NCBI RefSeq assembly: GCF_011742555.1
Contig: NZ_JAAQQR010000002.1
Coordinates: 558,001 to 622,000, forward strand
Source of the DNA: Luteibacter jiangsuensis
GTDB taxonomy: Bacteria; Pseudomonadota; Gammaproteobacteria; Xanthomonadales; Rhodanobacteraceae
Length of the DNA stretch: 64,000 nt
Direction of reading: 5' to 3'
A model generated the notes under the pieces. That model saw nothing but the letters and a program-made list of their open reading frames with translations. It did no database searches and was not told the DNA's origin. The translations under genes were made by a program, and so were the position numbers. Within the stretch, counting starts at the first letter, position 1; the number at the start of each line of letters is the position of its first letter. Below are positions 1,733 to 12,244 of this stretch, piece after piece.

Positions 1733-2326
1733 TTAGTCTGAAAATCGCGGACTTTGTTGTCCGTCCAGGCCTCCGCGCCACGCCTTGAGCCCCATCGCCG
1801 CCAGCACGATGAAACCCGCATACAGCACCGCCGTCACCGGCAGCGACTTGTAGACGTATTCCCCCACGTAGAACACGTCGACCACGATCCACAGCCACCA
1901 TGCCGCCGCGTGGCGCCGCGCCTGCCACCACTGCGCGACCAGGCTGAACGCGGTCAACGCCGCGTCCAGCCACGGTAGCGAGGCGTCCGTGTAGCGATGC
2001 ATGCCGTAGCCCAGCGCGAGTGCGGCTGCCGTGCCGATCGCCAGGTGCAGCGCCGCGTCGCGCACCGGCAGCGCGGCGATACGGACATGGCCGCTGCCGT
2101 CCAGGTTGCGCAGCCAGCGATGCCATCCGTACAGGATCAGCACGGCGAAGATGGCCTGCAGCAAGGTGTCCGAGTACAGCCGCGCATCGACGAATATCCA
2201 CGCGTATGCGAGGACCGACACCAGACCCACCGGCCAGCACCACGGGCTGCGCCGCGCGGTGAGCCACACGCCCGCCGCGCTCACCAGCGCGGCGAACACC
2301 TCGAAGGGGGACAATTCAAAAGTCAT
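1733..2326 (-). CDS. pnuT: PnuT-like thiamin (vitamin) transporter
   Basis: A 197-residue polytopic inner-membrane protein of the PnuC family (about 6-7 hydrophobic segments), with aromatic-rich stretches such as LVAQWWQARR and WWLWIVVDVFYVGEY that are typical of the substrate site. PnuC relatives take up nicotinamide riboside, but PnuT members carry thiamin. This one overlaps the end of a TonB-dependent receptor by 11 bases and lies downstream of a TPP riboswitch, so thiamin or a precursor is the likely substrate. The overlap implies translational coupling. The specificity is inferred from regulation and context, not from the sequence alone. Confidence 0.85.
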   Translation of the reverse strand: MTFELSPFEVFAALVSAAGVWLTARRSPWCWPVGLVSVLAYAWIFVDARLYSDTLLQAIFAVLILYGWHRWLRNLDGSGHVRIAALPVRDAALHLAIGTAAALALGYGMHRYTDASLPWLDAALTAFSLVAQWWQARRHAAAWWLWIVVDVFYVGEYVYKSLPVTAVLYAGFIVLAAMGLKAWRGGLDGQQSPRFSD

Positions 2327-4493
2327 ACGTCATCGACAGGCGTGCCAGGCGCGGCATGCCCGGGAACAGATAGCTGTCGCCGCCGGACGATCCCGTGTCG
2401 CGCCAGTAGAAGTGGTTGAAGACGTTGTCGACATTGAGCCGGAACGTGAGCGCGTGGCCGCTTACGCTCGTCGCGTAGCGCAGACCCGCATCGAACACGT
2501 GGTAGGCCGGCACCCGGCGCTGACCGTCCGGCGTCGCGACGTTCGCGCCGGCGTAGCGCCACCCGCCGAGGAGGGCCAGGCCGGGCGCGAACGGCAGGCT
2601 GTAGTCGGCGTAGACCGCCGTGCGCCAGCGCGGCACGTTCACGACCTGATGGCCTTCGTAAGCCGCAACGCCGGTGTTTTCGGCGCGCGCACGGATGGCG
2701 TTGGCGCTGGCGGTCAGCCGCAGGTTCTCGGTAACGCGACCGGCGAGGTTCAACTCCACGCCCGTGTGCACTTCCTGCCCCTGCTGCACGAAGGTGAAGC
2801 CTTCGGCCGTATCGTCGGGCCGTGCGAACTGGTATACCTGCCGGATGCGAAACACGGCGGCCTGCACGTCGAGCGCGTCGTTCACGGCGTACTTCACGCC
2901 GGCCTCCACCTGTCGGGAATGCAGCGGCGCGAGCGTGGTGCCGCCGTTCGACGTCCAGTAGGGTGCCTCGCGCCCCAGCGACAGCCCTTCTCCGTAGCTC
3001 AGGTACGTGGTCAGGGGCGCCGTGGGCTGCCAGAGCACGGCCGCCTGCGGCAGCGACTTGCTCATGCGCGTGTTGCGTTCGAGCGCGCCGTCGCTGTCGT
3101 ACGAACGCTCGTCGAGACGGACGAAACGCGTGCCCGCCAGCACCTGCCAGGTCTCGCCCAGGTGCACGCGGTCGATGGCGAACAAGGTGCGCTGCCAGCT
3201 CGTGAGGCGACGCACCGACGGTCCCGGCTGGTTCGGCGAGGGGTCGAACACCGGCACCGCGCGGTCGTCGATATTGGCGGTACCCACGTAGTCGTATACA
3301 TAGGCGCGCTGGTCGACCGTACGGCGAAACGACGTCGCGCCGACGTTCAACTCGTGGTCGACAGATCCCGTGGCGAAGCTGCCGGTAACCACGCCGCGCA
3401 CCTCGTCGTTCTGCCGCGTGTCGTCGGGGCTGCGGTAGTCGTAGACGTCGTAGTCGCCGTTGGGTGCGAAGAAATAGCCCGGCGTGGCGCCGGAAGCGCA
3501 CGCCTCGGCGTAGAAGCAGCCGTACGCGAACGCCACGTTGTCGTCGATCGCGGTGTGGCTGTGTCCCGCGGACACCTGCGCGTTCCAGTTGTCGCTGAAG
3601 CGGTAGTTGAAACGAAGCGACGTGTTGCTCGAATGGATGCCCACCGGGCGCTGCCACGGCTGATAGCCGAGCAGCCGTGTGCGGCTCGGGTGTCGCGGCA
3701 GATCCGTCCCGCCCAGCAACTGGTAGCCCGACGCCGAGCGCTGGCCGCTGGTCTGGTAGTCGGTGTCCAGCAGCAGCGTGGCCTTGTCGCCGATCTTCCA
3801 GTCCGCGGCCACGGAAACGAAGCTGCGGCGGCCGTCGGCGTGCTCGATGTACGAGTGCGTCTTCTCATTGGCGGCGTTCACACGCATGCCGAAGTCAGGC
3901 GTGAACCAGGTACCGAGGTCCAGGGCTTCGTAGTTCGATCCGTGCGAGTCGGTGCCGAGGGTGGCCGTGTGCACGTTCGCCGCGCGCTTGCTCACGTAGT
4001 TCACCAGGCCGCCCGGTTCCACCACGCCGGCTTCCAGTCCGCCCAGGCCTTTCAGCACCTCCACGCGCTCCTTGCCTTCGAGCGCCAGAAGCTGTTCCGC
4101 CGACATGATCATGCCGTTGAAGCGGAAGCCGGTGGCGAGATCGAGCGGGAAGCCGCGAATGGACACGTCCTGGTAATACCCCGCGGGGGCGTAGTTGTCG
4201 TTGATCGCGGCGTCGCCGCGCACGAGTTCGCTGAGCGTGCGCGGCTGGCGATCGTCGATCTGCGCCCGGGTCAGCACCGTGATGGACGCAGGAGTGTCGT
4301 GCAGCGGCGCGCTGCCGAAGCTGCCGAAGGTATCCAGCTGCGAATCCGTCGCGCGGTAGCTGTTGGCGGTGGTCGCGTGAACGTCCACCGTGGGCAAGGT
4401 GCGGGCCTGCTGCGGAGTGGCCGGCTCGTCGGCCGCATGGGCAGAGGCGGCGAACAGCAGGGCGAGGAAAAGCGGAGTGCGGGAGAGGGTCAT
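2316..4493 (-). CDS. TonB-dependent outer-membrane receptor, probably for thiamin
   Basis: A 725-residue receptor with a signal peptide (MTLSRTPLFLALLFAASAHA), a TonB-box-like stretch (LPTVDVHA) just after it, an N-terminal plug (roughly residues 55-160, ITVLTRAQIDDRQPRTLSELV) and a 22-strand barrel ending in the usual aromatic residue (SMTYDF). It has the siderophore-receptor layout, but its leader holds a TPP riboswitch and the next gene is a PnuT-like permease, so thiamin uptake is inferred. The start is placed at the ATG opening the signal peptide; a GTG six codons upstream is possible. The ATG sits immediately after a hairpin that could control its ribosome access. Confidence 0.88.
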   Translation of the reverse strand: MTLSRTPLFLALLFAASAHAADEPATPQQARTLPTVDVHATTANSYRATDSQLDTFGSFGSAPLHDTPASITVLTRAQIDDRQPRTLSELVRGDAAINDNYAPAGYYQDVSIRGFPLDLATGFRFNGMIMSAEQLLALEGKERVEVLKGLGGLEAGVVEPGGLVNYVSKRAANVHTATLGTDSHGSNYEALDLGTWFTPDFGMRVNAANEKTHSYIEHADGRRSFVSVAADWKIGDKATLLLDTDYQTSGQRSASGYQLLGGTDLPRHPSRTRLLGYQPWQRPVGIHSSNTSLRFNYRFSDNWNAQVSAGHSHTAIDDNVAFAYGCFYAEACASGATPGYFFAPNGDYDVYDYRSPDDTRQNDEVRGVVTGSFATGSVDHELNVGATSFRRTVDQRAYVYDYVGTANIDDRAVPVFDPSPNQPGPSVRRLTSWQRTLFAIDRVHLGETWQVLAGTRFVRLDERSYDSDGALERNTRMSKSLPQAAVLWQPTAPLTTYLSYGEGLSLGREAPYWTSNGGTTLAPLHSRQVEAGVKYAVNDALDVQAAVFRIRQVYQFARPDDTAEGFTFVQQGQEVHTGVELNLAGRVTENLRLTASANAIRARAENTGVAAYEGHQVVNVPRWRTAVYADYSLPFAPGLALLGGWRYAGANVATPDGQRRVPAYHVFDAGLRYATSVSGHALTFRLNVDNVFNHFYWRDTGSSGGDSYLFPGMPRLARLSMTYDF

Positions 4494-4524
4494 CGTCGTC
4501 TTCGGGTCCACGGACGAAGCGACG
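4494..4524 (-). promoter_or_regulatory. hairpin directly upstream of the receptor start codon (possible riboswitch expression platform)
   Basis: Read on the minus strand, CGTCG-CTTCG pairs with CGAAG-A-CGACG (10 base pairs, one bulged A, 10-base loop), and the 3' arm ends at the base before ATG. The arm contains the only purine-rich ribosome-binding candidate (GAAGACGACG). That fits translation control in which TPP binding lets this hairpin form. The pairing is visible in the sequence; the switching role is inferred. Confidence 0.5.
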
Positions 4525-4563
4525 GCGAACCACGGGCGCGACCGGCCTTTCGTGATTCTGCAA

Positions 4564-4637
4564 GCTCCCTACGCCGGTACTAACCGGGTCAGGTTCCAAG
4601 GGACTCTCTCAGCCCGGCATTGCCAGGCACCCCCGCT
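4564..4637 (-). promoter_or_regulatory. TPP riboswitch (THI element)
   Basis: The minus strand carries the diagnostic conserved blocks in order: GGGGTGCC near the 5' end, GGGCTGAGAGAGTCCC, CTTGGAACCTGACCCGG, and TTAGTACCGGCGTAGGGAG closing the element. CTGAGA and ACCTGA are the pyrimidine- and pyrophosphate-sensing signatures of the family. It lies 70 bases upstream of the receptor gene. It starts only about 30 bases after the stop of the upstream gene, so its promoter must overlap that gene's 3' end, or it is transcribed by read-through. Confidence 0.95.
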
Positions 4638-4665
4638 TCTAGAACGCGTATTGAACCACGAATCG

Positions 4666-5799
4666 TCAGGCGGCGCTGCGAATGGCCTCGAGCAGGGCCC
4701 GGCCGTGGGAGCCGGCGAACCACGCGGCGTGGCCGCGCAGGAAGGTGTGGTAGGCCACATCGGCGTGATCCCGGCGCTTCGTGATGCCCTCGAAATACTC
4801 GACCTCGGACAGCGCGAAATCCAGGTGTACAAGCGGAAGAAGGTCCGCGAGCAGGTCCATCGCGGCGGCGTCGAGCGGCCGGATGGACCGGTACCCCGCG
4901 ACGATAGCGAGGGCGAGGTCGTGCCGCGCGATGTCCCCCCGCGCCACCTCCAGCCAGGCGATGGCATTGCGCTCGATGGCGGTGGCAAGGTCGAACATGG
5001 CGAAGGTGCGCGCGGCGAGGCCCACATCGAGCACGTCGGTGATGACCGCGTCATCCTCCGGACCGCTCCAGCACAGGTTCGAGACGTGCCAGTCCCCATG
5101 GGTCCAGAGCGTCGGCTGGGTGCGCAGCCGCGCGGCGACGCGATCATGCCAGGGAGCGATGGCGGCGCCGATCTCGCTGCGCCAGTCGCGCGCGCCAAGG
5201 TAGCGGGCCAGCGCGGGACGCGAGGGAAGTTGCGCGACGATGGCCGCCAGCGGATCGCTCGACGCGAGAATGTCCGCACGCGCGACGAGGATGTGCGTGT
5301 TCCGCTGCGGTGCCTCGTAGTGCTCGGCGGCCGTATGCAACCTCGCGAGCATCGCTCCCGCCGCGAGCGCGTGCCCCCTGCCGCCGATGGGCGACCAGGA
5401 GAACGCGTCGCGATAGATGTCGGCGCCACGCGCGGGCTCGTGGATCTCGAAAACCCAGTCGCGGGTACCCAAGGCGGTGGCGCCGCCGGCGTCGTGGAGA
5501 ATGCGCGGCACGGGAACGCCACGTTCGCGGAGGTGGGCTGCGAAGCGATGCTCCTCGCCCAGCGTGGCCTCCGAGCGCACGCTGCGGTGATGTCGCTTGA
5601 CGAAGACTCGACCGTTCGCCGTGGTCACGAGCGCGGCGGCGGAAAGCGGCCGCGGGCTTCGCCATTCGATGGCACGCAACGCGCCCAGGCCGGGGACACG
5701 CTCGACGACCGACGACACTTCGTTCGCCGCGAGAGGCGGCCAGTCGGGCGTGAGTTGATCGCCGGCGAGGCCGTGCGCGAGGTGCGCGTCGTCGATCAT
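4666..5799 (-). CDS. aminoglycoside-phosphotransferase-fold kinase at the end of a bufferin operon
   Basis: A 377-residue kinase of the APH/choline-kinase family. The catalytic loop is HGDWHVSN (about residues 234-241), followed by the metal-binding segment ITDVLDVG (D255/D258). An ATP-lysine candidate lies in RVFVKRHH (about residue 68). The substrate is unknown; the fold covers small-molecule and thiamin kinases. Its ATG overlaps the stop codon of the preceding bufC-like gene (ATGA), which makes it the fourth cistron of the bufferin operon. The thiamin operon begins just downstream, so a thiamin-kinase role is an alternative, but it is not under the riboswitch. Confidence 0.85.
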   Translation of the reverse strand: MIDDAHLAHGLAGDQLTPDWPPLAANEVSSVVERVPGLGALRAIEWRSPRPLSAAALVTTANGRVFVKRHHRSVRSEATLGEEHRFAAHLRERGVPVPRILHDAGGATALGTRDWVFEIHEPARGADIYRDAFSWSPIGGRGHALAAGAMLARLHTAAEHYEAPQRNTHILVARADILASSDPLAAIVAQLPSRPALARYLGARDWRSEIGAAIAPWHDRVAARLRTQPTLWTHGDWHVSNLCWSGPEDDAVITDVLDVGLAARTFAMFDLATAIERNAIAWLEVARGDIARHDLALAIVAGYRSIRPLDAAAMDLLADLLPLVHLDFALSEVEYFEGITKRRDHADVAYHTFLRGHAAWFAGSHGRALLEAIRSAA

Positions 5800-6530
5800 C
5801 GGCGCAAGCCGCGGATCATGCCCTCGGCTGTCCACGCGCCCAGACAGCCGCCGGCGATCCGGGCGGTCTGCTCCTCGTCGTGCGTGCGGCGCAGGCCGGC
5901 GCAGATTTCGCCAAAGCTGGCTCCCGCGAGCGCGAGATCCAGGCAGGTGGCTTCGTCTGCCGTCATGCTTGCGAAACGGGGCGACAGCCCCTGCCGCCAC
6001 ACGCGCGCACCGACACCTGCGTCCACCAGAACGATCGGCGGTGGCGACACCTCGTCGGCCAGCGCGCGCCACAGCGCCACGGCGTTGCTGCGCATGGGGC
6101 GAAAGCGCAGCGTCGGCACGAAGTCGATTTCCACGCGGTCCCAGTCGTCGGCGGTCAGGTCGCGTACTTCCATGGGTTGCACGTCGGGGCCCGCGAAGGC
6201 GCGGCGAAGTTGCCAGTCCAGCCACGCCAGTTCGCCGACCTCCGCGTCCGCCGGATAGGCTCGGTCGAGCCAGTCGGCGAATTCGCTGCCGTAATCGTCC
6301 AGCGTCCATGACGACGGCGCATGGCTGTCGATATAGCGGCGGGCGTTGGCGTCGAACGCGTCGTCGCCCAGCCAGAGCACGGTCTTGGCATAGGTGTCGC
6401 GCAGGCAGGCGAGAAGCTGGGCACGATAGTTGTTCGCATACACTGCCATGCCACGCGGATCGACGCCCTCGGGCACGGCGCCCGCCGCGATCGCGGCGGC
6501 GAAGGCACGCTGTCGCTCGGTGAGGTTCAT
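5796..6530 (-). CDS. BufC/HvfC-like partner protein of MNIO (DUF2063), cluster 1
   Basis: A 244-residue DUF2063 protein. The N-terminal half has the family's helical pattern (RGMAVYANNYRAQLLACL, then a DDYGSEFADWL segment). The family acts as the substrate-recognition partner of DUF692 iron oxygenases and presents the precursor peptide to the enzyme. The start overlaps the stop of the MNIO gene (ATGA) and the stop overlaps the kinase start (ATGA), giving tight stoichiometric coupling. A second copy lies in cluster 2. Assignment rests on family pattern and context. Confidence 0.88.
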   Translation of the reverse strand: MNLTERQRAFAAAIAAGAVPEGVDPRGMAVYANNYRAQLLACLRDTYAKTVLWLGDDAFDANARRYIDSHAPSSWTLDDYGSEFADWLDRAYPADAEVGELAWLDWQLRRAFAGPDVQPMEVRDLTADDWDRVEIDFVPTLRFRPMRSNAVALWRALADEVSPPPIVLVDAGVGARVWRQGLSPRFASMTADEATCLDLALAGASFGEICAGLRRTHDEEQTARIAGGCLGAWTAEGMIRGLRR

Positions 6531-7360
6531 GCCGCGGCGCGACCGGCCAGCTCGCGCGCGTGCGCAAGCTCCGCCAGCAATTCGGAAAGCGGCGGGATAC
6601 GGTCGTCGCGCTCGATCATGACCGCCACGTCGCCGAGCCGTTCGGCAAAGAGCGCGTACAGGTCCCACACCGGATCGCACACCGGTGCATCGTGCGTGTC
6701 GATCAGCATGTCGATGCCCTGGCTGTGCCCCGCGAGATGGACCTGAAGCACCCGGTCGAGCGGCAGACGGCGAAGCCAGTCGTCCGGATCGTGTCCGTGG
6801 TTCGTGGCGCTCACGTAGATGTTGTTGACGTCGAGCAGCAGGTAACAGCCCGTGCGCGAACACAACTCGGCGAGGAACGCCGCCTCGCCCATGGCGGCTT
6901 CGGGAAACGCGAGATACGTGGAAGGATTCTCCAGCACCAGCGGGCGGCCCAGGGCGTCCTGCGCGGCATGCACGTTGGAGACCACGAGATCGAGCGCTTC
7001 TTCCGAGTACGGCAATGGAAGGAGATCGTGCGAATTGAAGCCGTCGACACCCGTCCAGCAGAGATGATCGGATACCCACGACGGCTGCACGCGATCCGCG
7101 AGCCGGCGCAGGCGGCGCAGGTAGTCGGGGTCCACGCCGTCGCTCGAACCGATGTTCATCGACACGCCGTGCATCACCACCGGGTAGCGCTCACGGATGC
7201 GGGTGAGCACGTCGAGCGGCCTGCCGCCCTCCACCATGAAATTCTCGGAGATCACTTCGAGGAAGTCGACGGGCTGCCGTGCCCCGAGGAAGTCGTCGTA
7301 ATGGGGCACCCGCAGGCCCAGTCCGAACCCGGATATCGCTGTCGGTGGGGAATGGGACAT
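6527..7360 (-). CDS. MNIO-family oxidative enzyme (DUF692, BufB-like), cluster 1
   Basis: A 277-residue TIM-barrel multinuclear non-heme iron oxygenase. Family ligand motifs are visible: MHGVSMNIGS, SDHLCW, ENPSTYL, LLLDVNNIYVSATNH, VHLAGH, DTHDAPV and IERDDRIPP. Such enzymes modify cysteines of small precursor peptides (for bufferins, thiooxazole formation, by established family work). The chosen ATG has a TGGAGC ribosome site 7 bases upstream. The substrate is presumably the six-cysteine peptide encoded 54 bases upstream, from which it is separated by a strong hairpin. Confidence 0.92.
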   Translation of the reverse strand: MSHSPPTAISGFGLGLRVPHYDDFLGARQPVDFLEVISENFMVEGGRPLDVLTRIRERYPVVMHGVSMNIGSSDGVDPDYLRRLRRLADRVQPSWVSDHLCWTGVDGFNSHDLLPLPYSEEALDLVVSNVHAAQDALGRPLVLENPSTYLAFPEAAMGEAAFLAELCSRTGCYLLLDVNNIYVSATNHGHDPDDWLRRLPLDRVLQVHLAGHSQGIDMLIDTHDAPVCDPVWDLYALFAERLGDVAVMIERDDRIPPLSELLAELAHARELAGRAAA

Positions 7361-7377
7361 CGGATGCTCCACACAAA

Positions 7378-7406
7378 GGCCCGGCCGCCGCGAGGCCGGC
7401 CGGGCC
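7378..7406 (-). terminator. intercistronic hairpin between bufferin precursor and MNIO genes
   Basis: Nine perfect base pairs (ggcccggcc / ggccgggcc), with additional inner pairing (gcc-gcga-ggc), lie between the precursor stop at 7414 and the MNIO start at 7360. There is no T-run, so it more likely acts as a partial terminator or a 3'-end stabiliser that raises precursor mRNA over enzyme mRNA. Cluster 2 has only a 4-base gap at the same junction. Confidence 0.6.
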
Positions 7407-7413
7407 ACCGCGA

Positions 7414-7677
7414 TTACTTGGCGGTTTCGCTGCCGCCCTGGGCCTTGCATTCCTTCACGGAAACTTCCTTGAAGCCCTGGCCCTTGCAGCTGTTCATACC
7501 CTTGCAGTCGTTGTGGGCGGTCTTGCAGTCCGACGTGCCCTTACAGCTGTTGATGCCGTAGCAATGCACCGTCTTGCCGGCGGCCTGCTCCCCGGCGTGG
7601 GCGGGCGCGGAGATCGCGGCGACCGAGACGGCGAAGACGGCGGCAGCGGCGGCGATGCTGTGGGTGGCGGTATTCAT
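7414..7677 (-). CDS. bufferin-type RiPP precursor, six-cysteine class, cluster 1
   Basis: An 87-residue protein with a signal peptide ending SAPAHA, followed by a short core with six cysteines in repeated contexts (HCYGINSCKG, SDCKT, NDCKG, NSCKG, ECKAQ). This is the pattern of the six/twelve-cysteine bufferin family, long-signal-peptide metallophores exported to the periplasm after MNIO modification and tied to copper tolerance. It is the first gene of a four-gene operon, and an ECF-type promoter lies 45 bases upstream. A start at an upstream codon would add polar residues before the signal peptide and is rejected. Confidence 0.88.
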   Translation of the reverse strand: MNTATHSIAAAAAVFAVSVAAISAPAHAGEQAAGKTVHCYGINSCKGTSDCKTAHNDCKGMNSCKGQGFKEVSVKECKAQGGSETAK

Positions 7678-7721
7678 GATCTTTCTCCGTGACAGGAAGG
7701 TTTGCCGGAATGGCATTGTCG

Positions 7722-7749
7722 GATTCGTTCGACCGGGCCCGTCGGTTAC
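7722..7749 (-). promoter_or_regulatory. ECF sigma promoter of bufferin operon 1
   Basis: On the minus strand, GTAACC (-35) is followed by exactly 16 bases and CGAATC (-10). The same motif with the same spacing occurs in front of bufferin operon 2 and the sigma factor gene in this window. It matches my recollection of the Caulobacter SigF promoter (GTAACC-N16-CGAA). The predicted transcript starts about 38 bases before the precursor ATG. Confidence 0.8.
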
Positions 7750-7807
7750 AGAAGCATACCTTTTTCGTCACCGGGAAGATGGGACGTTCACGGAACACCT
7801 GGAGGGT

Positions 7808-8329
7808 TCAAGGCCTCGGCAGAACGAGCCGATACTGCCCATCGCCGCCCAGGGGAGGTGCCGCCCCGTCGATACGTGCACAGAGGCGGCCGTCGCCGCA
7901 TGGCGCGACGTCCGCGCCGTTCACCGCCTTCAGGTACGCGACTTCTCCGAGGAGGCGCTCGTACTCCTGGCGGTAGTGCCCGTACAAGGCCTGATACACG
8001 AGTACGACGCCTGCAAGGGAAAGAAGGAGCATGCCGCCCATGCCGAGGTAGAGCCGTCTGCGCAGGTGCGCGAGGTTAAGCGCATGCACTTCGAAGCCTC
8101 GGGCGGCGCGATTGATTCGCCCCACCATCTCGCTCACCTCGTGCCGCACCGCCGTCATCGTCTGATGGGCGTCGGCGGCAAACGTCTGGCCCGACCGGTC
8201 CAGCCCGGCGCGCATCGTCATGCGAAGGTCGCGCATGCCGGCATGGAGTTCCCTGCGCAGGGTGGCGATCGCCACAACTCCTTCCTCGTGGACCCTGGAA
8301 TCCGCTTCCGCGTGTGCCTTGCCTGTCAT
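7808..8329 (-). CDS. single-span membrane protein of unknown function
   Basis: A 173-residue protein: a long helical, heptad-like N-terminal region (roughly 1-90, rich in Arg/Glu/His), one strong membrane segment (LGMGGMLLLSLAGVVLVYQAL, about 94-115), and a short C-terminal domain with two cysteines (VAPCGDGRLCARID) ending in YRLVLPRP. The C-terminal pattern vaguely recalls relaxase-associated proteins of xanthomonads, but I cannot assign it. It lies between the two bufferin operons on the same strand, without overlap, and has no ECF promoter of its own. Confidence 0.6.
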   Translation of the reverse strand: MTGKAHAEADSRVHEEGVVAIATLRRELHAGMRDLRMTMRAGLDRSGQTFAADAHQTMTAVRHEVSEMVGRINRAARGFEVHALNLAHLRRRLYLGMGGMLLLSLAGVVLVYQALYGHYRQEYERLLGEVAYLKAVNGADVAPCGDGRLCARIDGAAPPLGGDGQYRLVLPRP

Positions 8330-8460
8330 GCCGCCGCGCCGTCCGCCATCGAATGCGCGCGCAACCGAGAGTGGCCGCGCGTCGCATCCGCTAGTTTGCC
8401 GGTACGGTGGGCGCAGAATACGTGCGCGGCCCGCTTTTCAGATTTGTTCTAGGTGCGATG

Positions 8461-8928
8461 TCAGCGAATGCCGAGCGCCCGATCCAGGGAAAGCCGACCC
8501 GCTCCGCGGCCGAGCAGGTAGAGGAGAATGGCGGCCCACGAGAGATGCGTCGGCCAGGCATCGGGATAGACGAAGATTTCGATGATGGTCGTCATGCCGA
8601 GCAGGATGAACGCCGAGAAACGCGTGGCCAGGCCAAGCACCAGAAGAACGGGCACGAAGGTTTCGACGCCGGCGGAGAGGTGCGCGGCGATTTCCGGCGG
8701 AATCAACGGCAAGCGGTACTCGCTGCTGAACAGCTCGTACGTGCTGTCGGTCACGGTAAGGAAGCCTTCCACTTTCGTGCGCCCGGACTGGAAGAAGATG
8801 GCGGCGATGGAAAAACGCCCCGCCAGCGCCAGAAGGTCGTGGCCGATCCGCGCCTGAAGACGATCGGCGAAAGCATTCCAGCGGTTGCGCAAGGTGGGGC
8901 GGCTCGATACGAGGATGTCGGATGTCAT
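8461..8928 (-). CDS. DoxX-family membrane protein, last gene of bufferin operon 2
   Basis: A 155-residue protein with four membrane segments, including the family stretch [20 protein letters not shown] and [16 protein letters not shown]. DoxX proteins are common last genes of bufferin/HvfABC-type operons and are thought to be quinone-linked redox helpers. The start is set by an AAGGAA site 6 bases upstream; it lies 11 bases after the bufC-like stop. The exact role in peptide maturation or copper handling is unknown. Confidence 0.85.
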
Positions 8929-8939
8929 GGTGGATTCCT

Positions 8940-9674
8940 TCATGGGGTGGCGAATGCACCGGACCGCAGGAGCCCGGAAAGCGTGAGGTCGATACGGGCG
9001 TCGGGGTATGTCGTTGCGGCGGCCAGGGTCGCTTCGCCCAACGTGGCGCCGGCCGCGCATGCCTCCAGCAGATCGATCTCAAGCGGCCCGGCGGGCTGCA
9101 CGTGCACGCCGTGCGGCGTGCGAAGCACGAGTGCCTGTTCGGGCTGCCACGAGAGGTCCGCGTGCACCGCCTCGCCGCGACGGCTCGCCTCCCAGATGGT
9201 TCGCGAGGGCATGGCGGAGGAGAACCAGCGCGTAGCCGGATGGGGACGGAGGCATGTTCGCGCCAGCGCCCCGGGGCCGAGCGCTGCCAAGCGATCCGCA
9301 CCCAGCGTCGGTACGTCCTCGGCGTGCAGGCATTCCACGTACAGGCGGTCGAGCCGGGCCACGTCGGCAAGATAGGGAAGGCTGCCCGCCGGTTCGAAGC
9401 CCGCGAGGAAATCGGCGAACGATTCCCCATACATGGCCAGCCGTGCGTCGCGCGGCGGAGAGGATGCGACATGAATGGCGGCGGCGGACCGGAACCAGTC
9501 GCGGCCCACCAGGCATGCCACCGCCGGAAAGTTCGCCTCAAGCGCGTCCAGACATGCGCGCATCACGGTATTACGGTAGACGGCGAACGCCGGGTGGCTC
9601 GCGGGAGCGAACGAGGGCATGTCGGCGAAGAGCGCGGCGGCGAAGTCGCGCTGGAATGCGGCGAACCCGTTCAT
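8940..9674 (-). CDS. BufC/HvfC-like partner protein of MNIO (DUF2063), cluster 2
   Basis: A 244-residue DUF2063 protein with the typical N-terminal motif ([19 protein letters not shown], then a [12 protein letters not shown] segment). It is the same length as, but clearly diverged from, the cluster 1 copy, which suggests that each pairs with its own precursor. The start overlaps the MNIO stop (ATGA). It presumably recruits the four-cysteine precursor to the MNIO active site, by analogy with characterised partners. Confidence 0.9.
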
Positions 9675-10504
9675 GCCGCCATCCGCCGCTCACCCAGTAA
9701 CGTAGCGGCCCGCCGGCATTCCGCATGCAGTTCGTCGAAGGCCGGCACATGGCCGTCGCGCTCGATCAGGGTGGGGCATGCGCCCGCGAGCGCCAGTGCG
9801 TGGCGATAAAGCTCCCATACCGGTTCGGCAACGGGGCTGTCGTGGGAATCGACGAGCAATCCGCCTTCAAGTCCATCGTCGACGGCATGCCCCGCCAGGT
9901 GGATCTCGGTGACGGCACGCAGGGGGAAGGCAGCCAGGTACGCGCGCGCGTCGACGGCGAGATTGTGCGCGCTCACATACACGTTGTTGATGTCGAGCAG
10001 CAGACCGCAGCCGGTGCGGCGCACAAGCTCGGCGAGAAAATCGGTCTCGCTCCAGTCGTGTCCGTCGACCGGCAGATAATGCGACGGGTTTTCGAGCGAC
10101 AGCGCGCGACCGAGGACGTCCTGGCTGCGCTGCACGTTCTCCACCACGTGCGCGAGGGCTTCGTGCGTGCGCGGGAACGGCAGGAGGTCGGGAAGGTATG
10201 CGCCACCCCATGACGACCACGCCAGATGCTCGGACACGAGTACCGGGTTCACGCGGTCGACGAGCCGGCGCAGGCGGCGCAGATGGTTCGCGTCGGGCGG
10301 CGCGGCAGACGCCAGCGAAAGGGACACGCCGTGCAGCGAGACCGGGTGCCTCTCCGCCAGGGCGTCGAGCATCGCGGGGAGCGGACCGCCGCCGAAATAG
10401 TTTTCCGGGTGTACTTCGAACCACAGTCCGGGCGACGTGCATCGCAATGCGTCGTCGATGTGCTGCGGCTTGAAGCCGATACCGGCGGCAAGCGGTCCGC
10501 GCAT
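9671..10504 (-). CDS. MNIO-family oxidative enzyme (DUF692, BufB-like), cluster 2
   Basis: A 277-residue DUF692 protein with the conserved metal-site motifs SLHGVSLSLAS, SEHLAWS, ENPSHYL, DINNVYVSAHN, IHLAGH, DSHDSPV and IERDGHVP. It is expected to oxidise cysteines of the precursor encoded 4 bases upstream. It has the same length as the cluster 1 enzyme but differs through most of the sequence, so the two are ancient paralogues and not a recent duplication. The first motif is the GIGFKPQH type. Confidence 0.93.
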   Translation of the reverse strand: MRGPLAAGIGFKPQHIDDALRCTSPGLWFEVHPENYFGGGPLPAMLDALAERHPVSLHGVSLSLASAAPPDANHLRRLRRLVDRVNPVLVSEHLAWSSWGGAYLPDLLPFPRTHEALAHVVENVQRSQDVLGRALSLENPSHYLPVDGHDWSETDFLAELVRRTGCGLLLDINNVYVSAHNLAVDARAYLAAFPLRAVTEIHLAGHAVDDGLEGGLLVDSHDSPVAEPVWELYRHALALAGACPTLIERDGHVPAFDELHAECRRAATLLGERRMAA

Positions 10505-10508
10505 GGCG

Positions 10509-10787
10509 TCAGCCGACCTTCGTCAGCGAGCCGTTGCCGTGCGGCGTCTTGATCGAGGTGCACGTGCCGGCGGGAACCAGCTTCCACGCGTTCTTCTGGT
10601 AGTCGGCCTTGGCCGTACCCGCGCAGGTGGTACCCGGACCGGCGGCGCAGTCGTTCTGACCGGCCTTGGAAACGCCCCAGCACTTCTCCATGGCGGGCTT
10701 CTTCGCGGCCTGCGTGTCGTCCGCGTGGGCGACACCGCCCACCAGGGCGGCAAGGGTGAGGGCGAGCGTGGCGGCGTGACGGTTCAT
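10509..10787 (-). CDS. bufferin precursor, DUF2282 class, cluster 2
   Basis: A 92-residue protein: signal peptide ([22 protein letters not shown]) and a four-cysteine core ([36 protein letters not shown]) typical of DUF2282 bufferins. The product is periplasmic and MNIO-modified in studied cases and gives copper protection. The start is supported by GAGGAG 7 bases upstream. It heads the operon bufA-bufB-bufC-doxX. Its cysteine layout differs from cluster 1, so the two operons make chemically different products. Confidence 0.92.
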
Positions 10788-10832
10788 GTGTATCTCCTCG
10801 GATGACGGACGGAATGTCCGGATACCTGACCG

Positions 10833-10860
10833 AGTTCGTCGGCATGGCCCCCCCGGTTAC
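10833..10860 (-). promoter_or_regulatory. ECF sigma promoter of bufferin operon 2
   Basis: Minus-strand GTAACC, a 16-base spacer and CGAACT. The predicted transcript begins about 38 bases before the precursor ATG, the same distance as in operon 1. Confidence 0.8.
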
Positions 10861-10885
10861 AACGACAAAAACTTGCGAAACATCT

Positions 10886-10913
10886 GTAACCGGGCACCTC
10901 GTTCGGACGAATC
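10886..10913 (+). promoter_or_regulatory. ECF sigma promoter of the sigma/anti-sigma operon (autoregulation)
   Basis: Plus-strand GTAACC, a 16-base spacer and CGAATC, diverging from the operon 2 promoter with only 25 bases between the two -35 elements. It implies positive autoregulation of the sigma factor. The predicted leader to the ATG at 11010 is about 90 bases. Confidence 0.78.
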
Positions 10914-11009
10914 AGGTACATGGCCACCGAGGTACTCCCATGGTTGTTCCTGCAGCCCGCGCGCCCGGGCCCTTGCGATGCCCTACGCAACGCGGCTAAA
11001 ACCCTGCCG

Positions 11010-11606
11010 ATGAAAAACCGGCACGCCAGTGCGCCCCTCCTCGAACCACGACCGGCCGGGCCCTCCGCGGCCGAGGCCGAACTGCGCACTTGCCTCGTCG
11101 CCGGCCTTGCGGGCGACGCGGCGCGGTATCGACGCTTCCTCGACGGCCTGTCGGGTCACCTTCGCGCGTACCTTCGCCGCCGCCTGCCACGGGCGCGGGA
11201 CGACGTGGAGGACATCCTTCAGGAAACCCTCCTGGCGGTGCACAACGCCCGGCATACTTACCGCCCGGAACAACCTCTTACCGCCTGGGTCCATGCGATC
11301 GCCCGTTACAAGCTGATGGATTTCTTCCGAGCCCATTCGCGCCGGGAGGCATTGCACGACCCCTTCGACGACGATGGGGGGTTGTTCGTCGCGTCCGATG
11401 TGGAACCCACCGACGCCCGCCGCGACGTGACGGCGCTGCTCCAGGCCCTGCCCGACCGCCATCGGCTGCCCATCCAGCTGGTGAAACTGGAGGGCCTGTC
11501 GGTGGCCGAGGCGGCGCGATGCTGCGGCATGTCCGAATCGGCAGTGAAGGTGGGCGTGCACCGGGGGCTGAAGGCCCTGGCGGCACGTATTCGGGGGAAC
11601 GCATGA
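11010..11606 (+). CDS. ECF RNA polymerase sigma factor (SigF-like)
   Basis: A 198-residue sigma-70-family factor with region 2 (about 45-115, including [21 protein letters not shown] and [17 protein letters not shown]) and region 4 (about 140-195, [20 protein letters not shown], an HTH). It should direct the three GTAACC-N16-CGAA promoters in this window. The start at ATG 11010 is chosen because the predicted promoter's transcript begins near 10920, which excludes the longer reading. Its last codons overlap the anti-sigma gene (ATGA). The pairing with a DUF1109 protein matches the Caulobacter SigF-NrsF system. Confidence 0.9.
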
Positions 11607-12244
11607 AGACCGACGACTTCATCGCCCTGCTCGCCGCCCAGACACCTCCGGTGGACCAGCACGCCCCCGCACGGCGGTTCGCCCTCGCCTGGATTGCCGG
11701 TTTCGTGGTGGCGCTGCTGCTGATGGTGCTGCTGCTGGGCGTGCGGCCGGATATCGAAGATGCCGTGCGGATGCCCACCTTCTGGTTCCGGCTGTGCTAC
11801 GCCGGTGCCATCGCGGCTGCCGCCCTCTGGGTCACGGCCCGCCTGGCACGGCCCGGAGTGCGGGTGGGGGGCGCATGGGCGGTATTGGCCACGCCCGTGG
11901 CGCTGGGCTGGGTGGCCATGGGCTGGGTGCTGGCCCATGCAGCCCCGGGCACGCACCTGCCGCTGATCCTGGGGCACACCTGGCGGGTCTGCCCCATCCT
12001 TATCGCCACCCTCGCCATGCCGGCGTTCGTGGCCATGCTGTGGGCCGTGCGCGGCATGGCCCCGGTCAGGCCAAGGCTGGCCGGGGCCGCGGTTGGGCTG
12101 CTCGCCGGCGCGACGGGTACCGTGGCCTATTGCCTGCACTGCCCGGAAATGGCGCCCCCCTTCTGGTCCACCTGGTACCTTCTGGGCATGTTGATCCCCG
12201 CCGCCCTCGGTACGCTCGTCGGTCCACGCGCCCTGCGCTGGTGA
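11603..12244 (+). CDS. NrsF-like membrane anti-sigma factor (DUF1109)
   Basis: A 213-residue protein with a short cytoplasmic N-terminus ([13 protein letters not shown], the family signature) and six predicted membrane helices. Cysteines at the edges of later helices (HTWRVCP and YCLHCPE) resemble the conserved pair needed for metal or redox sensing in Caulobacter NrsF. It should hold the adjacent sigma factor inactive at the membrane until metal stress. The gene overlaps the sigma gene by four bases. Confidence 0.88.

What the first reader, a model, noticed from the sequence alone, without database searches (positions are those of the whole stretch)
4666..12244. Two different bufferin (MNIO RiPP) operons and their ECF sigma/anti-sigma pair form one compact regulon
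Operon 1 encodes a six-cysteine precursor and operon 2 a DUF2282 four-cysteine precursor, each with its own DUF692 enzyme and DUF2063 partner. Between and beside them sits a DUF1109 anti-sigma with its ECF sigma. Having two classes of copper-type bufferin under what looks like one sigma in 7.6 kb suggests a division of labour (for example, different metals, oxidation states or affinities).
Basis: partly seen in the sequence, partly recalled or inferred. Interest (0 to 1): 0.82.

Follow-up and report, generated by a model that had tools for sequence, protein, structure and literature searches.

The report
Two copper-bufferin operons, one sigma switch
A bacterium of the genus Luteibacter keeps two different families of modified, probably copper-soaking peptides side by side under one stress switch; the parts are known from other bacteria, but packing both families around one switch, and the way relatives seem to get by with a single shared maturation enzyme, is a useful variant.

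Summary
In a Luteibacter genome, 7.6 kb carry a Buf2-type bufferin operon (six-Cys bufA2-bufB-bufC), a Buf1-type operon (four-Cys DUF2282 bufA1-bufB-bufC-doxX) and a divergent ECF sigma/NrsF-type anti-sigma pair. The published Caulobacter sigma-F promoter, GTAACC-N16-CGAA, stands before all three units and before 19/19 bufA1 and 19/19 bufA2 in the window plus 18 related loci; among 40 bufA2 genes of loci without linked sigma-F, 0 have it exactly and 7 with one mismatch. So 'one regulon' is well supported by sequence. It is not new in kind: Caulobacter SigF-NrsF drives two MNIO operons under copper (PMC8224329, PMC3511200). New is the linked layout, which a 2025 survey did not find for Buf2 (PMC12452194); it recurs in sphingomonads. 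The two BufB enzymes are not a tandem duplicate. 'Division of labour by metal' is unsupported: 13 of 17 relatives with both precursors in the cluster show only one MNIO, so one enzyme probably serves both. The kinase gene at 4666-5799 goes with a TPP-riboswitch receptor and is not a core part.

The parts
7724..7749 (-). sigma-F-type promoter of the Buf2 operon, TGTAACC-N16-CGAA
   Evidence: exact motif 41-48 nt before the bufA2 profile hit in 19 of 19 loci
7414..7677 (-). bufA2: six-Cys bufferin precursor with Sec-type signal peptide; five of six Cys are followed by Lys
   Evidence: NF050166 108.7 bits; Cys positions and N-terminal hydrophobic stretch
6527..7372 (-). bufB2: MNIO maturase of the Cys-Lys type (Asp after the IERD motif)
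   Evidence: PF05114, NF050167 374.5 bits; motif; 3bww alignment
5796..6530 (-). bufC2: DUF2063 partner protein
   Evidence: PF09836 79.3 bits
10835..10860 (-). sigma-F-type promoter of the Buf1 operon
   Evidence: exact motif 48-70 nt before the bufA1 profile hit in 19 of 19 loci
10509..10787 (-). bufA1: DUF2282 four-Cys bufferin precursor with signal peptide
   Evidence: PF10048 89.4 bits
9671..10504 (-). bufB1: MNIO maturase of the Buf1 type (Gly after the IERD motif)
   Evidence: NF050167 358.7 bits
8940..9674 (-). bufC1: DUF2063 partner protein
   Evidence: PF09836 68.7 bits
8461..8931 (-). doxX: DoxX/HvfX-like membrane protein, last gene of the Buf1 operon
   Evidence: PF07681 56.9 bits; NF050144 49.5 bits, below its cut-off of 80
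10886..10911 (+). sigma-F-type promoter of the sigma/anti-sigma operon (autoregulation, inferred)
   Evidence: promoter seen in the maps of all 19 loci; the distance rule counts 18 of 19
11010..11606 (+). ECF sigma factor, SigF/ECF16-like
   Evidence: NF009188 (PRK12536 subfamily) 293 bits against 250
11603..12244 (+). NrsF-type anti-sigma (DUF1109), membrane protein with Cys130 and Cys180 at the positions of the Caulobacter sensor cysteines
   Evidence: NF042994 152 bits; both Cys invariant in an alignment of 11 main-copy homologues, window included; hydropathy

Best explanation
The 7.6 kb are one sigma-F-controlled periplasmic metal-buffering response. In resting cells the membrane protein NrsF holds the ECF sigma factor. 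Excess metal, most probably copper, acts on NrsF through Cys130 and Cys180; the released sigma factor reads TGTAACC-N16-CGAA promoters before its own operon, before bufA1-bufB1-bufC1-doxX and before bufA2-bufB2-bufC2 (and before an orphan bufA1 elsewhere in the genome). Each BufB-BufC pair oxidises Cys residues of its precursor to thiooxazoles in the cytoplasm before Sec export; the mature Buf1 and Buf2 peptides sequester copper in the periplasm. The two classes most likely share the chemistry and differ in the number and spacing of sites (six against four Cys) and in the DoxX partner, which in the loci examined goes with Buf1. The cluster was assembled from two separate lineages, a Buf1-sigma-F cassette like that of Betaproteobacteria and a Buf2 operon related to those of sphingomonads, not by tandem duplication. 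Shown here: gene content, promoter sequences, their conservation, separate descent, sensor cysteines. Inferred: metal sensing, sigma release, modification, export and copper binding.
For: Family scores. Three promoters in the window identical to the published Caulobacter SigF sequence GTAACC-N16-CGAA (figure legend passage of PMC3511200). Conservation: 19/19 bufA1 and 19/19 bufA2 with the exact motif in 18 Luteibacter loci (window included) and 1 Pinirhizobacter locus; exact motif at 0/40 bufA2 in 34 loci without linked sigma-F and at 0/25 bufA1 and 0/25 bufA2 in an unlinked composite operon. NrsF Cys130/Cys180 invariant in 11 aligned sequences, matching C131/C181, whose replacement raises expression of the Caulobacter regulon (PMC3511200). 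Caulobacter SigF regulon induced by Cu in all tested conditions and a sigF::Tn5 mutant Cu-sensitive (PMC8224329). BufB1 is 67% identical to BufB of betaproteobacterial Buf1 loci but 46.6% to its neighbour BufB2; BufB2 is 67% identical to the best sphingomonad BufB; tree branch 99% SH-aLRT. DoxX in 105/117 bufA1-containing and 0/35 bufA2-only loci.
Against: I found no expression, metal or mass-spectrometric data for this organism. NrsF scores below its NCBIfam cut-off (152 against 300), so its inducer need not be copper: related ECF16 systems answer chromate and cadmium (PMC3511200) or hypochlorite (PMC8315932, passages). In Cupriavidus metallidurans the homologous gig cluster is induced by Cu, Ag and Au but does not affect copper resistance (as reported in PMC8224329). 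The motif alone is weak: the 23 genus genomes have 1-23 exact matches each against 1-10 for the reversed control; position and conservation make it convincing. With one mismatch allowed, 7 of the 40 control bufA2 genes also have the motif upstream, so the control is clean only for the exact pattern. The loci were chosen by strong BufA2 hits or by motif spacing (L132, L133), so the presence of bufA2 in them is partly by selection. The tree is a quick one; the careful search did not finish.
Confidence: 0.78

Rival explanations
1. Division of labour: the two bufferins handle different metals, oxidation states or affinities, which is why each keeps its own enzyme pair.
For: Two enzyme pairs of separate descent are kept together: BufB2 stands in all 19 Luteibacter/Pinirhizobacter clusters and BufB1 in 16 of them. 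Buf1 and Buf2 precursors differ in site number and in the residue after the inner Cys (Ala against Lys), and BufB1/BufB2 differ at the substrate-contact residue (Gly against Asp).
Against: 13 of 17 relatives with both precursors in the cluster show one MNIO genome-wide, and the 4 tested for DUF2063 have one. Three Luteibacter lack BufB1 in the cluster but keep bufA1 and bufC1, although each has a further MNIO elsewhere. [quoted passage not shown]
Confidence: 0.15
2. The response is primarily to oxidants (hypochlorite, peroxide) rather than metal, with the Cys-rich peptides serving as redox sinks and metal binding secondary.
For: An ECF16 system with nearly the same promoter and the same anti-sigma type answers HOCl in Brucella (PMC8315932, passages). 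A Caulobacter sigF mutant is reported to have impaired stationary-phase oxidative stress resistance (stated in PMC8224329). The second, sigma-F-independent bufferin operon of this genome starts with an Ohr peroxiredoxin.
Against: Caulobacter CC3255 was not raised more than twofold by peroxides, paraquat or diamide but was raised by Cr and Cd (PMC3511200), and the regulon rises under Cu (PMC8224329). The only PF00174 (MsrP-like) match of this genome has no exact sigma-F motif in its fetched 3.4 kb.
Confidence: 0.12
3. The kinase gene at 4666-5799 is a tailoring or immunity gene of the Buf2 operon.
For: It overlaps the bufC2 stop by 4 nt in the window and lies within 60 bp of bufC2 in 7 of 19 loci.
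Against: In 5 of 19 loci it is 0.6-6.5 kb away and in 7 of 19 absent from the fetched stretch, while a TonB receptor follows it in all 11 loci where the stretch reaches far enough.
Confidence: 0.06

Closest known systems
Caulobacter crescentus/vibrioides SigF-NrsF regulon (CCNA_03362-03366 with NrsF, 02999-03001, 02833-02834)
   Same: Same promoter sequence and spacing, same type of anti-sigma with two conserved cysteines, a DUF2282-MNIO-DUF2063-DoxX operon next to the sigma gene and a second MNIO-DUF2063 operon (PMC3511200, PMC8224329; passages).
   Different: In Caulobacter the second MNIO operon and MsrPQ are at other loci; here Buf1, Buf2 and sigma-F/NrsF are contiguous, an orphan bufA1 also has the promoter, and no exact motif is found at the MsrP-like gene. 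That the second Caulobacter operon is the Buf2 operon is my inference.
gig (gold-induced genes) and other betaproteobacterial Buf1 clusters such as those of Acidovorax
   Same: bufA1-bufB-bufC-doxX facing sigF-nrsF with two divergent promoters; BufB1 67% identical. That gig is the Cupriavidus form is taken from PMC8224329.
   Different: No Buf2 within the fetched stretch: bufA1 only in 32 of 80 named NrsF loci, mostly Betaproteobacteria by their record names.
Sphingomonas/Sphingobium sigma-F clusters
   Same: bufA1, doxX, sigF, nrsF, bufA2, bufB2, bufC2 linked (12 named loci), with the exact promoter before 10 of 12 bufA1 and 10 of 12 bufA2, one mismatch in the others.
   Different: bufA1-doxX has no BufB/BufC beside it; one pair serves the locus, and 9 of these 12 genomes show one MNIO in all.
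Captophorins (thiooxazole metallophores of MNIO-PME1 clusters)
   Same: Cys-Lys (BufA2) and DUF2282 (BufA1) precursor classes with MNIO and DUF2063 partner (PMC13097082, passages).
   Different: Modification not tested here; two classes in one locus.

Membership tests
Buf1 bufferin operon | DUF2282 precursor with signal peptide and four Cys | tested here: met
   PF10048 89.4 bits; Cys 36, 47, 55, 76 and hydrophobic stretch 4-22; signal peptide judged from that stretch only
Buf1 bufferin operon | BufB-type MNIO followed by DUF2063 partner, gene order ABC, DoxX | tested here: met
Buf2 bufferin operon | six-Cys precursor with signal peptide | tested here: met
   NF050166 108.7 bits against 60; Cys 39, 45, 51, 58, 64, 77 and hydrophobic stretch 8-26
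Buf2 bufferin operon | BufB-type MNIO and DUF2063 partner | tested here: met
Bufferin (Buf1 and Buf2) | Cys-derived thiooxazoles and copper binding | not testable with these tools
   needs mass spectrometry and metal titration
SigF-NrsF (ECF16) system | ECF sigma gene followed by a six-TM DUF1109 anti-sigma carrying two conserved Cys | tested here: met
   genes overlap by 4 nt; NF042994 match; Cys130/180; seven hydrophobic windows, two of them overlapping, so the number of segments is not settled
SigF-NrsF (ECF16) system | NrsF equivalog by NCBIfam cut-off | tested here: not met
   152.2 bits against 300: of the NrsF kind, but not the equivalog
SigF-NrsF (ECF16) system | GTAACC-N16-CGAA promoters on sigma operon and targets | tested here: met
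SigF-NrsF (ECF16) system | induction by copper, chromate or cadmium | not testable with these tools
   expression data needed

The most novel reading that the evidence does not exclude
Precursor class and MNIO are not tied one to one: a BufB2-type enzyme is naturally bispecific, and bufferin loci switch between one shared pair (sphingomonads, and the unlinked Ohr-bufA1-doxX-hydrolase-bufA2-bufB-bufC operon of this family) and two dedicated pairs (Luteibacter). In the sphingomonad form BufA1 often carries, after its second Cys, the Lys that BufB2-type enzymes are thought to contact (12 of 17, against 0 of 19 Luteibacter, 0 of 25 composite and 3 of 36 other loci), which would be enzyme-substrate co-adaptation. 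Against this last step: all 5 sphingomonad-form genomes with Ala there have a single MNIO, and of the 12 with Lys only 8 do, and the composite operon keeps Ala; so Lys is not required for sharing. Probability lowered from 0.40 to 0.35 after that recount.
Probability: 0.35. Interest if true: 0.62.

Novelty: new variant of a known kind. Interest (0 to 1): 0.48.

Why it matters
Bufferins are a recently described and widespread way for bacteria to cope with copper. The locus puts both bufferin classes, their two enzyme pairs and their sigma switch in one 7.6 kb piece that can be studied as a unit, and its relatives supply a natural series (two pairs, one BufB missing from the cluster, one pair only) for asking what decides which precursor an MNIO modifies. 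It also qualifies a survey statement that sigma and NrsF genes are not found with Buf2.

Tried and rejected
Kinase as part of the operon: rejected as core. 173-aa ORF 8329-7808: no Pfam match at 0.001, only in the window and its closest relative among 19 loci; not part of the system. Tandem duplication of the two operons: rejected (BufB1/BufB2 46.6% identical, each closer to other lineages). A further regulon member at C16:237553 (motif just before a Cys-cluster protein, named by eye): a similar motif was seen in one relative among the rows listed, a capped list; probably chance. MsrP as a member: no exact motif in its fetched stretch. 'BufB1 lost, so BufB2 must serve BufA1' in Luteibacter G101, G178, G197: weakened, because each has a further MNIO; in G101 and G178 one lies beside another DUF2282 gene, in G197 it was not inspected. 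'The exact-motif control is absolute': softened. Searching papers for 'bufferin' alone listed only 'buffering' papers among the 30 shown. PDB sequence searches for bufC2 and the kinase found nothing at their limits. Plasmid search with BufA2: 25 records, none covering 80% of the query; not pursued. Structure prediction and fold searches were not used.

Limits of counts: the 80 named NrsF loci are the best 80 of 164 and include genomes also held under G handles; 25 of them gave no bufA by my profiles, some on short contigs. Of the 6 fetched loci of the unnamed family f53, L157 was left out of the '17' because no bufA1 was found in its cluster (its genome has two MNIOs). Completeness of the 12 named sphingomonad genomes is not told and three are MAGs, so 'one MNIO' there is a lower bound; their DUF2282, BufA2 and DUF2063 numbers were not searched genome-wide. 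That f53 is a sphingomonad family is my inference; the tool says only 'same phylum'. Three divergent f53 anti-sigmas (33-44 bits) and the extra NrsF copies were not in the alignment. In the Luteibacter sample G198 and G200 were not inspected for the cluster. The NF050166 control search did not ring in the 14 control genomes, Caulobacter among them, although PMC12452194 says Caulobacter has a Buf2.
Full report
What is there. The window lies in a Luteibacter genome: contigs of same-genus genomes match named Luteibacter records in length, and the nearest, Luteibacter sp. SG786, has an identical anti-sigma protein. Reading along the minus strand: bufA1 (10787-10509), bufB1, bufC1, doxX (to 8461); then a 173-aa ORF without Pfam match (8329-7808); then bufA2 (7677-7414), bufB2, bufC2 (to 5796), an APH-type kinase gene (5799-4666), a TPP riboswitch (4644-4549) and a TonB receptor. 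Divergent from bufA1 on the plus strand are an ECF sigma gene (11010-11606) and an NrsF-type anti-sigma gene (11603-12244). The sigma pair is thus beside operon 2, not between the operons.

Regulation. GTAACC-N15-17-CGAA occurs three times in 64 kb, all with spacing 16, once before each of bufA1, bufA2 and the sigma gene; 0.18 were expected and none of 100 shuffles had three. In the whole genome five exact N16 matches exist: these three, one about 45 nt before an orphan DUF2282 precursor on contig 11, and one before a Cys-cluster protein that is probably chance. GTAACC-N16-CGAA is the published binding sequence of Caulobacter SigF (PMC3511200, figure legend passage). In 19 loci (the window, 17 further Luteibacter and one Pinirhizobacter, chosen by strong BufA2 hits or by motif spacing) the exact motif precedes bufA1 in 19 of 19 and bufA2 in 19 of 19, at 48-70 and 41-48 nt from the profile hit; the distance rule finds it before sigF in 18 of 19, and the maps show it in all. 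Controls: in 34 loci without linked sigma-F/NrsF, 0 of 40 bufA2 genes have the exact motif and 7 of 40 have it with one mismatch; in the composite operon described below 0 of 25 bufA1 and 0 of 25 bufA2 have it even with one mismatch. Three of the seven near-matches (GTAACT-N16-CGAA, 67-69 nt upstream; L067-L069) belong to another genus of the family; two of those genomes (G163, G172) have a Buf1-sigma-F-NrsF cluster elsewhere (L139, L140), so an unlinked, Caulobacter-like regulon may exist in this family too. The orphan bufA1 with its promoter was found in three genomes (G000, G076, G112). The anti-sigma carries Cys130 and Cys180, invariant in 11 aligned sequences (with two extra copies included, one lacks Cys130), matching C131/C181 of Caulobacter NrsF, whose replacement by Ser raises basal expression (PMC3511200).

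Origin. BufB1 and BufB2 are 46.6% identical, BufC1 and BufC2 31% over 78 residues, and the precursors barely align. BufB1 is 67% identical to BufB of betaproteobacterial Buf1-sigma-F clusters (Simplicispira, Acidovorax; best of 34), BufB2 67% to the best sphingomonad BufB. In a quick maximum-likelihood tree of 130 BufB proteins the branch holding Luteibacter BufB1 with the betaproteobacterial Buf1 enzymes has 99% SH-aLRT, and BufB2 falls with the Buf2-associated ones (the careful search did not finish). The cluster was therefore assembled from two lineages. The residue after the IERD motif, a substrate contact according to PMC13097082 (Phe in Lys-Cys enzymes, Asp in Cys-Lys enzymes; passages), is Gly in all 16 cluster BufB1 and Asp in 18 of 19 cluster BufB2; over the 167 enzymes assigned to a precursor it is Asp in 91 of 103 Buf2-associated and not conserved in 64 Buf1-associated ones (31 Gly, 20 Asp, 13 other or unread; 8 unassigned enzymes dropped).

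How widespread. In the genus, 18 of 23 genomes were shown to have the cluster; two have no MNIO, one has only the composite operon, two were not inspected. In a draw of 397 genomes of the phylum, 35 have a BufA2 over the cut-off. I fetched all 36 such loci from the 33 genomes outside the family: 6 have sigma-F and NrsF linked, all in one unnamed family, f53; 30 do not, within about 10 kb. Among the best 80 of 164 named NrsF loci, 22 have both bufA1 and bufA2 in the fetched stretch, 32 bufA1 only, 1 bufA2 only and 25 neither by my profiles. The 22 fall into two forms: Luteibacter, Pinirhizobacter and Coralloluteibacterium (10) with two enzyme pairs (one lacks bufB1), and Sphingomonas/Sphingobium (12) with doxX-bufA1, sigF-nrsF and bufA2-bufB2-bufC2, that is one pair. 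In the 12, the exact promoter precedes 10 bufA1 and 10 bufA2, with one mismatch in the others; in f53 it precedes 3 of 5 bufA1 (2 more with one mismatch) and 6 of 6 bufA2. [quoted passage not shown]

One enzyme for two precursors. Of 17 genomes with both precursors in a one-pair cluster (5 of f53 and 12 named), 13 show exactly one MNIO in the whole genome (4 of 5; 9 of 12). The four of f53 also have exactly one DUF2282 and one DUF2063 and are listed as complete; the named ones are of untold completeness. If both precursors are modified, one pair does it; whether both are modified is not shown. PMC12452194 already noted genomes with several precursors and a single pair (discussion). In the 17, the residue after Cys2 of BufA1 is Lys in 12, against 0 of 19 Luteibacter, 0 of 25 composite and 3 of 36 other (mostly betaproteobacterial) loci (Fisher p 3e-9, not corrected for relatedness). 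But the Lys does not follow the enzyme number: 8 of the 12 with Lys and 5 of the 5 with Ala have a single MNIO. The composite operon, also with one pair, keeps Ala. That second, sigma-F-independent operon of this genome (contig 14) runs Ohr, bufA1, doxX, alpha/beta hydrolase, bufA2, bufB, bufC; in 25 fetched loci of the family the hydrolase lies between bufA1 and bufA2 in 25 and Ohr is beside bufA1 in 21. DoxX is present in 105 of 117 loci with bufA1 and in 0 of 35 with bufA2 only (the sets contain some genomes twice).

What is known. Caulobacter SigF-NrsF controls both MNIO operons and MsrPQ; all rise under copper, and a sigF insertion mutant is copper-sensitive, while Cr and Cd sensitivity of a sigF mutant is unchanged (PMC8224329, passages). 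Buf1 carries thiooxazoles and binds Cu(I) and Cu(II); preliminary data give Buf2 the same mass loss and similar absorbance (PMC12452194, discussion). That CCNA_02999-03001 is the Caulobacter Buf2 operon is my inference; the 2012 paper still calls its precursor DUF2282, and the BufA2 model did not ring in the Caulobacter control genome. Searching NrsF with DUF2282 returned three papers, all cited here, of which the parts I read do not describe this linked layout; Luteibacter with DUF692 returned none; DUF2282, DUF692 and Sphingo- returned one Pseudomonas paper, seen as a listing only. Most subscription papers are not in that library; I did not find or read the original bufferin paper.

Verdict. 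A real, conserved, compact regulon of known parts in a new arrangement. The most useful outcome is not a division of labour between metals but a natural series of loci for testing what ties a bufferin precursor to its enzyme.

Noticed in passing
window 4549-4644(-), 2316-4511(-), 4666-5799(-): TPP riboswitch before a TonB receptor, with an APH-type kinase gene just upstream; kinase and receptor travel together in relatives, hinting at a thiamine-linked pair.
   Followed up: partly
window 7808-8329(-): 173-aa ORF with one hydrophobic stretch and no Pfam match, between doxX and the bufA2 promoter, among 19 loci only in the window and Luteibacter sp. SG786 (L052).
   Followed up: partly
L077 (own genome, contig 14, 369176-385415): Operon Ohr-bufA1-doxX-alpha/beta hydrolase-bufA2-bufB-bufC without sigma-F promoter: two bufferin classes, one enzyme pair, plus a peroxiredoxin; recurs in the family.
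   Followed up: partly
L090 5695-5414(-), own genome contig 11: Orphan bufA1 with a sigma-F promoter and no enzyme gene found beside it; also in L134 and L135.
   Followed up: yes
L051, L061, L066, L133: Two NrsF genes flank the sigma gene; in L051 the extra copy has Ala in place of sensor Cys130.
   Followed up: partly
L067, L068, L069 and L180, L181, L185: bufA2 operons without linked sigma-F that carry conserved one-mismatch forms of the sigma-F motif upstream (GTAACT-N16-CGAA; GTAACC-N16-CGTA), suggesting sigma-F-like control from a distance.
   Followed up: partly
L266 6782-8566(-): Rhodoferax MAG: BufB and BufC domains in one 595-aa open frame behind bufA2, divergent from sigF-nrsF: a possible fused maturase and a Buf2-only sigma-F locus.
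   Followed up: partly
L202, L204: Burkholderia-type loci with two bufA1 units and two NrsF genes around one sigma gene, with several sigma-F-type promoters.
   Followed up: no
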